The position numbers were made by a program, and so were the translations under genes. The notes under the pieces were generated by a model that was not told where the DNA came from, did not search any database, and worked only from the letters and a program-made list of their open reading frames with translations. Positions 28,959 to 30,580 of a stretch of 32,760 nt of DNA are shown piece by piece (within the stretch, counting starts at the first letter, position 1; each line of letters starts with the position of its first letter). The stretch spans positions 1 to 32,760 of the forward strand of contig CAMKES010000018.1 in assembly GCA_946411635.1 (NCBI GenBank), in the 5' to 3' direction. Source of the DNA: an uncultured Clostridia bacterium (lineage in GTDB: Bacteria > Bacillota > Clostridia > Christensenellales > CAG-138).

Positions 28959-28986
28959 AGACCTTTCAGCGCCTTGCCGTGTCTTG
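28959..28986 (-). repeat. Rubrerythrin gene-tail repeat R1 (partial)
   Basis: 28 bp matching the rubrerythrin tail at 30553-30580 at 26 positions. It contains the codons for RHGKALKGL but is cut before the terminal codons. It supplies the last codons and stop of the ADP-ribosyltransferase gene in another frame. Confidence 0.85.
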
Positions 28987-29709
28987 TTTGTGCACATCGA
29001 AAAGTTCCGCGAAAGCCTCTGTTGCCGATTGAATCAACCGTTCCAATTCGAGCGGCTGACGCGCGTCAAGTGACACCGTCAAGACGCCGTCTTCGATGTG
29101 CTCGCCTTTGACCCGGTATCGCATCGGCGGCAGCAGCACCTCATGCTCATCGTTCTCAAGGAAAAGTGCGGGCAGACCCGACGGAACGTCTATTTGAAGA
29201 ATCTGCGCGGGTTTTCGGAAATTGTTTTGTCCGTAATTGATCTGCTGTCCGGTTGTGCTCGTCGAGGTCAGCCCCAACAGATCGACCTGCTCTCCTTCTC
29301 GAATGTTTTTCAGGCAGAATGCGGCTTCCATATTCCGGAACAATCGAACCGGTTCCCGGATAGGATGCATCGAATCGCAAATCAGCCGAATATCGGTGAT
29401 TGCCTGATGGAGAATGTCCCTCTTTGCTTCGTTTGTCAGCTCGGCAGGCGTTCTGCGCCGATAGCTTTCGAAGAGGGCTGCTCCGTCCAGCCCGGAAAAC
29501 GCGAATCGGTTTTCGGGGCCTTCCTCCTTCGCCTCGCGAATCACGTCGCGATTGTTCTGCCAAACGATGCCGATGCACGGATCCATCGCTTCTTTGTTGA
29601 TCCAAAGAAACGCATTGATGATCAAATAATCCGCACCGGTATAGAACCACAGGCTTTCTTTCAAACGGTCATCCATGACAGTACTCTTTCTCAAAAAGGG
29701 ACAGCGCAC
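28966..29709 (-). CDS. ADP-ribosyltransferase domain protein, R-S-E class, no signal peptide
   Basis: Product of 247 residues from a GTG at 29709 (AGAGG 8 nt upstream) or 236 from the ATG at 29676, whose own SD is weak. Numbered from the ATG: an ART-type N-terminus (SLWFYTGADYLIINAFLW), conserved Arg114 in PVRLFRNME, an STS motif at 138-140 (LTSTSTTG), and Glu177-His-Glu179 in DEHEVLLPPMRYRV. R, STS and ExE are the NAD-binding and catalytic set of arginine-specific toxins of the exoenzyme (VIP2/C2-like) group. No export signal, binding component or immunity gene was recognised. The last codons (DTARR) are encoded inside rubrerythrin-tail repeat R1. The target protein is unknown. Confidence 0.82.
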   Translation of the reverse strand: MRCPFLRKSTVMDDRLKESLWFYTGADYLIINAFLWINKEAMDPCIGIVWQNNRDVIREAKEEGPENRFAFSGLDGAALFESYRRRTPAELTNEAKRDILHQAITDIRLICDSMHPIREPVRLFRNMEAAFCLKNIREGEQVDLLGLTSTSTTGQQINYGQNNFRKPAQILQIDVPSGLPALFLENDEHEVLLPPMRYRVKGEHIEDGVLTVSLDARQPLELERLIQSATEAFAELFDVHKQDTARR

Positions 29710-29750
29710 TTGCCGTTCCTCTCAAAAGTCCCCGAATCCGGGCGTTTTGC

Positions 29751-29793
29751 TTATTTGAAATATCTCTCCAAAAGGCCCTTCAGCGCCTTGCCG
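29751..29793 (-). repeat. Rubrerythrin gene-tail repeat R2
   Basis: 43 bp with four differences from the true gene end at 30531-30573, exactly 780 bp away, including the codons for [13 protein letters not shown] and the stop. Weaker similarity continues through the terminator and leader (about 29720-29750 against 30491-30530). The lipoprotein stop codon is directly beside it. Confidence 0.95.
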
Positions 29794-29794
29794 G

Positions 29795-30484
29795 TTATCC
29801 GAAGATCAACGCGTCGAGCGCAGCCGATTGCTCTTCCGTACAATAAACCAAAATTGCGATTTGATCCATGGCAGGAAGCAGATGCAGCCGTTTGGGGCAG
29901 TTTTCCTTTTCCAGCACATCCTCCATGAAATCAATGATCTCAGGGTTGATCCAATCACCGTAGCTGGTCAGTTCGATTGCATAGGGATGACCGTTGCAAA
30001 GGAAGGAGACGCTTCGCGTCCCGTCGGTCATCTCTCCCGATTCCTCCGAGGACGTCATTTCCTCCGTCATTCCGGATAAATCTTCCTTCACATCCGTGAT
30101 TTCGATATCGGGAACAATGGATTGTATCCCTTTCAGAAAGAGCGTATACATATGCTCAATGTCAAAAACTTCGGCGTCAAAAGCGTATACCCGATCCGAG
30201 GTCGGCGTCCACTCGCCGGACTCATCATCATAATCGCCCATTCCGAGCTCTGCCAAAAGCATATATGCTTCGATTCCGCTGTTTCCCCCGAAGGCTCCTT
30301 TCAGCGAAGGATCCTCCTTCACGTCAAATCCAAGCTCACGCAGTTTTTCGGCTGTGGTTTCCATACGATTCTCCTTTTCGGTTCCGGATGTGCTCCCGGC
30401 ATCGGTTTGCGGCTGCTTTCCGCTTTGGGCGCATCCCAGGCAAAGAGCGAAAGCAAGCAGCATCACTGCGATTCGTCTGATCAT
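29795..30484 (-). CDS. Lipoprotein of unknown function
   Basis: Product of 229 residues. The ATG at 30484 has GAGGTG 4 nt upstream. A type-II signal peptide is followed by CLGC (Cys18 as lipidated residue; Cys at position -3 is slightly atypical). The mature part is acidic and globular (TAEKLRELGFDVKED, then AFDAEVFDIEHMYTLFLKG, then YAIELTSYGDWINPEIIDFM), with no recognised domain. It is probably anchored at the outer face of the membrane. The rubrerythrin terminator ends 5 nt before its ribosome binding site, so there is no room for a promoter. The gene ends directly at repeat R2. A partner or antagonist of the downstream ADP-ribosyltransferase is possible, but nothing in the sequence proves it. 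Confidence 0.88.
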   Translation of the reverse strand: MIRRIAVMLLAFALCLGCAQSGKQPQTDAGSTSGTEKENRMETTAEKLRELGFDVKEDPSLKGAFGGNSGIEAYMLLAELGMGDYDDESGEWTPTSDRVYAFDAEVFDIEHMYTLFLKGIQSIVPDIEITDVKEDLSGMTEEMTSSEESGEMTDGTRSVSFLCNGHPYAIELTSYGDWINPEIIDFMEDVLEKENCPKRLHLLPAMDQIAILVYCTEEQSAALDALIFG

Positions 30485-30494
30485 GCTGCACCTC

Positions 30495-30521
30495 AAAAAG
30501 GACGCCGGAAATCCGGCGTCC
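30495..30521 (-). terminator. Terminator of the rubrerythrin gene, abutting the lipoprotein ribosome binding site
   Basis: A 10-bp perfect stem (GGACGCCGGA with its complement) followed on the minus strand by TTTTT, which leads straight into the GAGGTG of the lipoprotein gene. Confidence 0.9.
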
Positions 30522-30530
30522 TACTCGTTT

Positions 30531-30580
30531 TTATTTGAAATATCTCTCCAAAAGACCTTTCAGTGCCTTTCCGTGTCTTG
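30531..30580 (-). repeat. Rubrerythrin gene-tail repeat R3 (the functional copy)
   Basis: Coding end of the rubrerythrin gene. R1 and R2 share two bases that differ from this copy (CAGCG for CAGTG, CTTG for CTTT), so the displaced tails are closer to each other than to the present gene. Confidence 0.85.

What the first reader, a model, noticed from the sequence alone, without database searches (positions are those of the whole stretch)
28959..30580. Two single-gene cassettes, each ending in a copy of the rubrerythrin gene tail
The sequence shows three same-orientation copies of the rubrerythrin 3' end: R3 (30531-30580, functional), R2 (29751-29793) and R1 (28959-28986). R2 and R3 are exactly 780 bp apart, and R1 and R2 cores are 814 bp apart. 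Each interval holds one ORF in the same direction: a lipoprotein, then an ADP-ribosyltransferase. The lipoprotein stop touches R2, and the transferase stop lies within R1. This is what repeated insertion at a gene 3' end would leave (intact gene restored, old tails displaced), or a cassette array that uses the gene tail as its joining site. R1 and R2 share bases that differ from R3. A caution: the outer limits of R1 and R2 are not the same, so a site-specific crossover is not proven; tandem duplication with replacement of the gene body is the main alternative. No recombinase gene is in the window.
Basis: partly seen in the sequence, partly recalled or inferred. Interest (0 to 1): 0.78.

Follow-up and report, generated by a model that had tools for sequence, protein, structure and literature searches.

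The report
Gene cassettes stacked behind rubrerythrin
In a genome related to rumen Clostridia, two small genes sit behind the rubrerythrin gene as separate cassettes, each closed by a copy of that gene's end, and relatives carry other cassettes at the same spot, so this looks like a gene-capture site that works like an integron without an integron's known enzyme.

Summary
The three tail repeats are real: R2/R3 score 31, best of 500 shuffles 14. The spot is an insertion hotspot. Own-tail copies lie downstream of rubrerythrin (rbr) in 14 of 97 loci, upstream in 0 of 97; other ORFs have tail-only copies in 5 of 1317. The window genes recur as units. The lipoprotein-like gene occurs in 4 of 103 family genomes, always beside an rbr tail. 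The ADP-ribosyltransferase (ART) gene occurs in 5, in 4 of them at the rbr locus. Cassettes are 85-98% identical between genomes whose compared core DNA is 68-84%, so they moved horizontally. The tail copy starts at a cargo stop codon in 25 of 37 intervals, 3.9 expected; this explains why R1 and R2 differ in extent. Elements with a tyrosine integrase share the site: all 4 close homologues in 103 genomes lie beside a displaced tail. No recombinase was seen in the compact cassettes and the crossover is not pinned. Best reading: integron-like single-gene cassettes stacked at a protein gene's 3' end and moved in trans. Integron integrase: 0 of 23 over cut-off. Main rival: decayed integrative elements.

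The parts
30531..31076 (-). rubrerythrin gene (rbr), host anchor; its 3' end is the insertion site
   Evidence: Pfam RUBY_RBDX and Rubrerythrin; some match in all 23 genus genomes, 16 of them with a near-full-length copy at 73-97% identity besides the window's own
30531..30590 (-). R3: functional rbr tail
   Evidence: tail model match at 30537-30590, 55.8 bits
29757..30536 (-). cassette 1 (780 bp): end of the rbr gene, terminator-like hairpin, lipoprotein-like gene, displaced tail R2
   Evidence: the same unit in G005, G015, G061
29795..30496 (-). lipoprotein-like ORF (TTG at 30496 or ATG at 30484), 233 aa, no Pfam, NCBIfam or PHROGs family at the limits used
   Evidence: fold prediction unreliable, pLDDT 41
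30499..30522 (.). hairpin between the rbr stop and the cargo start; terminator-like, followed by TTTTT on the - strand
   Evidence: one search lists the hairpin on the + strand; the stem is a near-perfect palindrome, and the - strand reading is
29751..29793 (-). R2: displaced tail, 1 base after the lipoprotein-like stop
   Evidence: (35.9 bits)
28943..29756 (-). cassette 2 (814 bp): leader with hairpin and terminator, ART gene, displaced tail R1
   Evidence: 98.3% identical over 787 nt in G020
29701..29716 (-). terminator-like hairpin in the cassette 2 leader
28966..29709 (-). ADP-ribosyltransferase-like ORF (GTG at 29709; ATG at 29676 more likely), 247 aa; conserved R125, S149/S151, E190
   Evidence: pLDDT 81; Foldseek hits to ADP-ribosyltransferases, best E 3e-8, TM-scores of the query about 0.3-0.5; Pfam PF03496 only E 0.032, below cut-off
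28957..28986 (-). R1: displaced, decayed tail; holds the ART stop
   Evidence: (23.2 bits)
28880..28911 (.). terminator-like hairpin of the convergent P-type ATPase gene, far edge of the array
   Evidence: ATPase Pfam PF00122
31127..31155 (-). promoter-like site upstream of rbr; in 28850-31200 the only other one on this strand lies inside the lipoprotein-like ORF (30256-30227)
   Evidence: 2 sites found against 1.0 expected, so weak

Best explanation
The 3' end of rbr is a repeatedly used insertion site. Compact cassettes, mostly one gene each, enter there one after another. Each brings its own copy of the rbr tail, so rbr stays intact while the old tail is pushed downstream behind the new cargo; the newest cassette lies next to rbr. 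Most cargo starts a few dozen bases behind the tail, with little room for a promoter, so read-through from rbr probably serves it (inferred). Shown here: tail copies, shared cassettes in different contexts, horizontal transfer of cassettes, cargo stop codon joined to the tail, and integrase-bearing elements at the same site. Supported by two genome pairs only: the newest-first order. Inferred: the cassette moves as a circle by site-specific recombination, with a tyrosine recombinase acting in trans (perhaps from the integrase-bearing elements; I give that step 0.35).
For: Own-tail copies downstream in 14 of 97 rbr loci and upstream in 0 of 97 (L066 is the same contig as G005 and L065 as G006, so 13 of 95 distinct). 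Other ORFs: 9 of 1317 have a copy, 5 of them tail-only. No reverse-strand tail at the threshold used in 116 loci. Sharing and order: LIPO lies directly behind rbr in G000, G005 and G015, and behind an rbr tail at a contig start in G061; ART is second in G000 and second after the rbr end at the contig start in G020, behind different first cassettes; a Zn-ribbon-like cassette is first in G016 and second in G013, 99.4% identical over 176 nt. Horizontal transfer: ART 98.3% G000/G020, where compared core DNA is 73 and 84%; LIPO 96.6% G000/G005 (core 75-83%) and 85.2% with another genus (core 68-76%). Cargo confined to the locus: LIPO in 4 of 4 genomes that have it, ART in 4 of 5. Compactness: 25 of 37 intervals against 3.9 expected, maximum 14 in 20000 simulations; 27 of 40 intervals are at most 1100 bp. 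Tail replacement: G013/G016 rbr body 252/340 identical but last 48 nt 47/48; G014 has one tail type in rbr and another displaced. Integrase P0001: 4 hits at E 1e-40 in 103 genomes, all 217-286 bp from an rbr tail.
Against: No recombinase was seen in the compact cassettes. P0001-type integrase is absent, at E 1e-40, from G000 and 98 other family genomes. The crossover is not pinned: in G000/G005 the rbr tails are no more alike (32/36) than the bodies (304/340), identity being unbroken only from base -14 on, and in G000/G015 they are less alike (28/36 against 299/340). 83 of 97 loci show no displaced tail. ART relatives in G045 and G083 sit behind rbr without a recognisable tail after them. 12 of 37 short intervals are not compact, and at least three of the 25 compact ones (G009, G047, L092) rest on ORFs of 54-73 aa that may not be genes. 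I compared no same-species pair with and without a cassette.
Confidence: 0.68

Rival explanations
1. Decayed integrative elements (CIMEs): ICE- or IME-like elements entered rbr 3' ends by site-specific integration, lost their integrase and most genes, and left att-flanked single genes; later elements stacked on top (accretion).
For: Integrase-bearing elements do use the site: G004, G041 (13 kb with type III restriction-modification), G070, G087, and L110 with a distant integrase. Fragments of the small integrase's 3' end lie behind rbr in G082, G078, G064 and G010. CIME accretion is established (PMC5704250, passages read).
Against: Decay does not predict that the tail starts at a cargo stop codon in 25 of 37 intervals, nor the same single-gene unit in different genomes and slots. 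The four P0001-type elements carry longer tails (60-72 nt) and have no same-strand ORF end near the tail.
Confidence: 0.2
2. Homologous or homology-assisted illegitimate recombination: incoming donor rbr-plus-downstream DNA recombines through rbr and short shared sequence.
For: Tails offer about 35-90 nt of homology; exchange points look variable.
Against: rbr bodies do not travel with the cassettes (G013/G016 body 74%, cassette 99.4%). Other genes show tail-only copies in only 5 of 1317.
Confidence: 0.08
3. Tandem duplication of the rbr end followed by replacement of the gene body.
For: Same-direction repeats at 780 and 814 bp; one genome, G438, does have tandem full rbr genes.
Against: Cargo differs between relatives, recurs between distant genomes and is not rbr-like.
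Confidence: 0.01
4. Assembly artefact of short-read MAGs joined at repeats.
For: Contigs often break here (G015, G013, G020).
Against: Tail copies differ in sequence, recur in many separate genomes, always in one orientation, and broken contigs overlap exactly by 99 and 46 nt.
Confidence: 0.03

Closest known systems
Integron gene cassettes (features recalled)
   Same: Single genes with little room for a promoter, recombination site starting just after the cargo stop codon, array at one anchor, newest probably next to the anchor, cargo of small unknowns and a toxin-antitoxin-type pair
   Different: No integron integrase over cut-off in 23 genus genomes; joining site is coding sequence of a host gene; no marked single-strand fold of R2 (z -0.74 and -0.55); no tyrosine recombinase beside the array in the window
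CIMEs and accretion at ICE/IME att sites (PMC5704250, passages)
   Same: att-flanked DNA without integrase, stacked at a gene 3' end, integrase elements at the same site
   Different: Here mostly one gene of 0.2-1 kb, joined to the tail at its stop codon, recurring as a unit, once across genera (LIPO in G061)
SCC and pseudo-SCC elements at the rlmH 3' end of staphylococci (recalled; listing only)
   Same: Elements with and without recombinase in series at one gene 3' end, gene end restored
   Different: SCC are tens of kb and use serine recombinases; here single genes, and the site-linked recombinases seen are tyrosine type; serine recombinases were not searched

Membership tests
Integron | IntI-type integrase in the genome | tested here: not met
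   TIGR02249: 0 of 23 genus genomes over the cut-off of 265 bits; other genera not tested
Integron | attC sites that fold as single-stranded hairpins | tested here: inconclusive
   five stretches folded: R2 region z -0.74 and -0.55 on the two strands, R1 +1.14, two relatives -1.73 and +1.28; no strong fold, but a small sample
Integron | array of single-gene cassettes joined by one repeated site that follows the cargo stop codon | tested here: met
Integron | new cassettes enter next to the anchor | tested here: inconclusive
   two pairs fit (ART in G000/G020, Zn-ribbon-like cassette in G013/G016)
CIME | flanked by att-like direct repeats, no integrase inside | tested here: met
   tails flank the cassettes; no Phage_integrase match on contig C18
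CIME | derived from an integrative element that lost its genes | tested here: inconclusive
   integrase elements share the site; integrase-gene fragments behind rbr were found in G010, G064, G078, G082 only
CIME | excision or transfer with a helper | not testable with these tools
   needs an experiment
SCC | rlmH 3' end as target | tested here: not met
   the target is rbr
SCC | ccr serine recombinase | not tested
   serine recombinases were not searched

The most novel reading that the evidence does not exclude
A gene-cassette capture system independent of integrons: the 3' end of a housekeeping gene is both insertion site and joining site, genes are cut at their stop codon and fused to the tail, and each new cassette rewrites the last 12-18 codons of rubrerythrin. 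It would be widespread in uncultured Clostridia and run by a recombinase not yet identified.
Probability: 0.4. Interest if true: 0.85.

Novelty: new variant of a known kind. Interest (0 to 1): 0.74.

Why it matters
If true, integron-like capture of single genes does not need an integron, and a protein gene's end can play the part of attI and attC. It would give rumen and gut Clostridia a gene-acquisition locus that can be read in any metagenome through one conserved gene. It also makes an old question testable in a second system: how single genes become cassettes cut at their stop codons.

Tried and rejected
Tried without result. Exact tail pattern in viral contigs: 0. P0001: no relative in viral contigs, none in plasmids or phages at E 1e-30. 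Silent-site conservation of the tail: not raised; codons 171-176 are instead about twice as variable at third positions as the gene mean, rank 2 of 175 windows in 12 close genomes, which fits imported tails but is weak. Sequence search of solved structures with ART: none at E 1. LIPO fold: unreliable. PADLOC on 8 cargo proteins: none; type III restriction-modification in the G041 element.

Considered and dropped. A crossover fixed at GGCAAG: suggested by the LIPO junction in G061, but slippage between two GGCAAG repeats explains it as well, and G000/G005 do not fit it. Tail left limits as crossover marks: dropped after one search showed that they follow the cargo stop.

Rows left out or set by hand. 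G438 was left out of the boundary count: it has tandem full rbr genes, but also one displaced-looking tail 1349 bp behind rbr, whose cargo ORF ends well before the tail, so it would have counted as not compact. L093, with one weak upstream hit (17.1), was left out too. In one search the loci were kept apart (three of those ten, G136, G271 and G453, were single-tail comparisons); five family loci in its rate (G043, G069, G087, G047, G060) had been fetched because of their tails, so I cite for the rate (L086, the G069 contig, came into independently). G042 and L100 appear to be the same contig (equal length) and both count among the ORFs. In some searches the G005 and G016 limits were set by hand to -37, because mis-registered them by one base. 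One search found a cargo ORF for 43 of 44 tails (26 of the 43 compact); one search used the 37 intervals under 4 kb with a known left end; the 40 with a known left end. One search was a first version that picked wrong ORFs and was replaced. One search's first gene control mislabelled some rbr genes and was replaced.

Papers: listings only; passages of PMC5704250. No paper listed (20 of 488 shown; 15 of 91 shown) holds the word rubrerythrin, and (rubrerythrin, conjugative element, insertion site) found 0 papers. That is the whole basis for saying that I saw no prior report.

Full report
WHAT IS THERE. On the minus strand the window reads rbr, lipoprotein-like gene (LIPO), ART gene, then the end of a convergent P-type ATPase gene. 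The rbr end recurs twice downstream in the same direction: R2 after LIPO and R1 after ART, 780 and 814 bp apart. Against shuffled sequence the R2 match is far beyond chance: score 31 against at most 14 in 500. R1 is weaker (23.2 bits with the tail model), but the same ART-to-tail junction recurs in G020.

RELATIVES. The genome has 23 genus members held, itself included. Behind rbr the DNA differs between most of them. In a set of 97 rbr loci not chosen for tails (80 GenBank loci, the best 80 of 589, and 17 genus genomes), 14 carry a copy of their own tail downstream and none upstream. A like test on 1317 other ORFs of the fetched neighbourhoods found 9 with a copy, 5 of them tail-only. A 54-position tail model found a tail at E 0.01 in 75 of 103 family genomes. 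By my count from that table, 16 of the 103 have two or more on one contig and strand within 15 kb, some of the second ones weak. At order level 256 of 396 genomes have a tail. Of six order-level clusters fetched, five hold inserts between tails; the sixth, G438, mixes one displaced-looking tail with tandem full rbr genes.

CASSETTES. Between tails lie mostly short inserts: 27 of 40 are at most 1100 bp, median 777. Cargo includes zinc-ribbon-like proteins (below Pfam cut-off), a 54-aa membrane-like protein, a DUF4160 protein, a protein with weak helix-hairpin-helix matches, barnase-like RNase with barstar, and a CPCC protein. The same cargo recurs in different slots: LIPO first in G000, G005 and G015; ART second in G000, and second after the rbr end at the contig start in G020, behind different first cassettes; one zinc-ribbon-like cassette first in G016 and second in G013. 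This is what stacking next to rbr would give, though only two pairs show it. Cassettes are more alike than the genomes: ART 98.3% where compared core DNA is 73 and 84%; LIPO 96.6%, 91-95% and 85.2% where core DNA is 75-83%, 75-81% and 68-76%. In 103 family genomes LIPO occurs in four, always beside an rbr tail. ART occurs in five: in G000 and G020 within arrays, in two other genera (G045, G083; 51 and 61% protein identity) 209 and 49 bp behind the rbr tail, and in G079 (37%) elsewhere. In G045 and G083 no trailing tail is recognisable.

STOP-CODON JOIN. The left limit of 44 tail copies varies from about -33 to -90 bases before the conserved TTC. For the compact inserts it follows the cargo: in 25 of 37 intervals under 4 kb a same-strand ORF stops within -12 to +23 bases of that limit, 3.9 expected, at most 14 in 20000 simulations. 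Three of the 25 (G009, G047, L092) rest on ORFs of 54-73 aa that may not be genes. The four P0001-type elements behave differently: tails of 60-72 bases and the nearest same-strand ORF end 336-564 bases away. The start side is short too: 17 of 25 compact cassettes have their ATG within 110 bases of the preceding tail, median 56 over the 25. In the window a terminator-like hairpin fills the gap before LIPO, and the promoter-like sites on this strand are upstream of rbr and inside LIPO, so read-through from rbr is likely but not shown.

TAIL REPLACEMENT. G013 and G016 have rbr bodies 74% identical (252/340) but 47 of the last 48 bases identical. In G014 the rbr end and the displaced end encode different C-termini. 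Against this, G000 and G005 share a cassette but not a more similar tail (32/36 against 304/340), nor do G000 and G015 (28/36 against 299/340). So the exchange lies somewhere in the last 50 bases or so, perhaps not always at the same place, and I cannot fix it.

ENZYME. A 404-aa tyrosine integrase (P0001; Phage_integrase and Phage_int_SAM_3) has four close relatives, itself included, in 103 family genomes, and each lies 217-286 bp from a displaced rbr tail. The same contigs carry a second, 187-aa tyrosine recombinase (PHROGs integrase), which also occurs in G011 and G052, where I did not see an rbr tail beside it. In G070 that gene's own 3' tail recurs about 560 bp downstream around one small gene, so a second anchor gene may exist. 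Neither enzyme matches in the window's genome at the limits used. Whether either moves the cassettes is unknown. The integron integrase model is over cut-off in 0 of 23 genus genomes.

VERDICT. It works like an integron array but lacks the integron integrase and shows no marked attC-like fold in a small sample. It has the outward form of CIMEs, but compactness and recurrence speak against mere decay. I file it as a new variant of a known kind.

Noticed in passing
L178 936-2150 (G070:C16): A 187-aa tyrosine recombinase gene whose own 3' tail recurs about 560 bp downstream around one small gene; a relative of that small gene and a remnant of the recombinase tail lie in the G010 array.
   Followed up: partly
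window 29690-29750 and loci G003, G004, G009, G014, G020, G022: Displaced tails and some rbr stops are followed by a similar stretch, AAATAAGCAAAACG(C/T)CC, a short loop, then GGG(A)CTTTT or close to it, a weak hairpin, and then a terminator-like stem whose sequence differs between genomes.
   Followed up: partly
L146 7738-11914 (G041:C84): A 13-kb element at the rbr end carries type III restriction-modification genes and two tyrosine recombinases.
   Followed up: partly
L170 (G438:C151): Tandem near-identical full rbr genes in one genome, besides one displaced-looking tail.
   Followed up: no
L083 12594-13510: Barnase-like and barstar genes side by side as cargo behind rbr.
   Followed up: no
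G079:C36:35456-36091: A distant ART relative (37%) away from the genome's rbr contig.
   Followed up: no
L048, upstream of rbr (G003:C15): A tRNA-like stretch (my reading, not scanned) with a partial copy, and an integrase with one stop codon upstream of rbr: perhaps a separate tRNA-site element.
   Followed up: no
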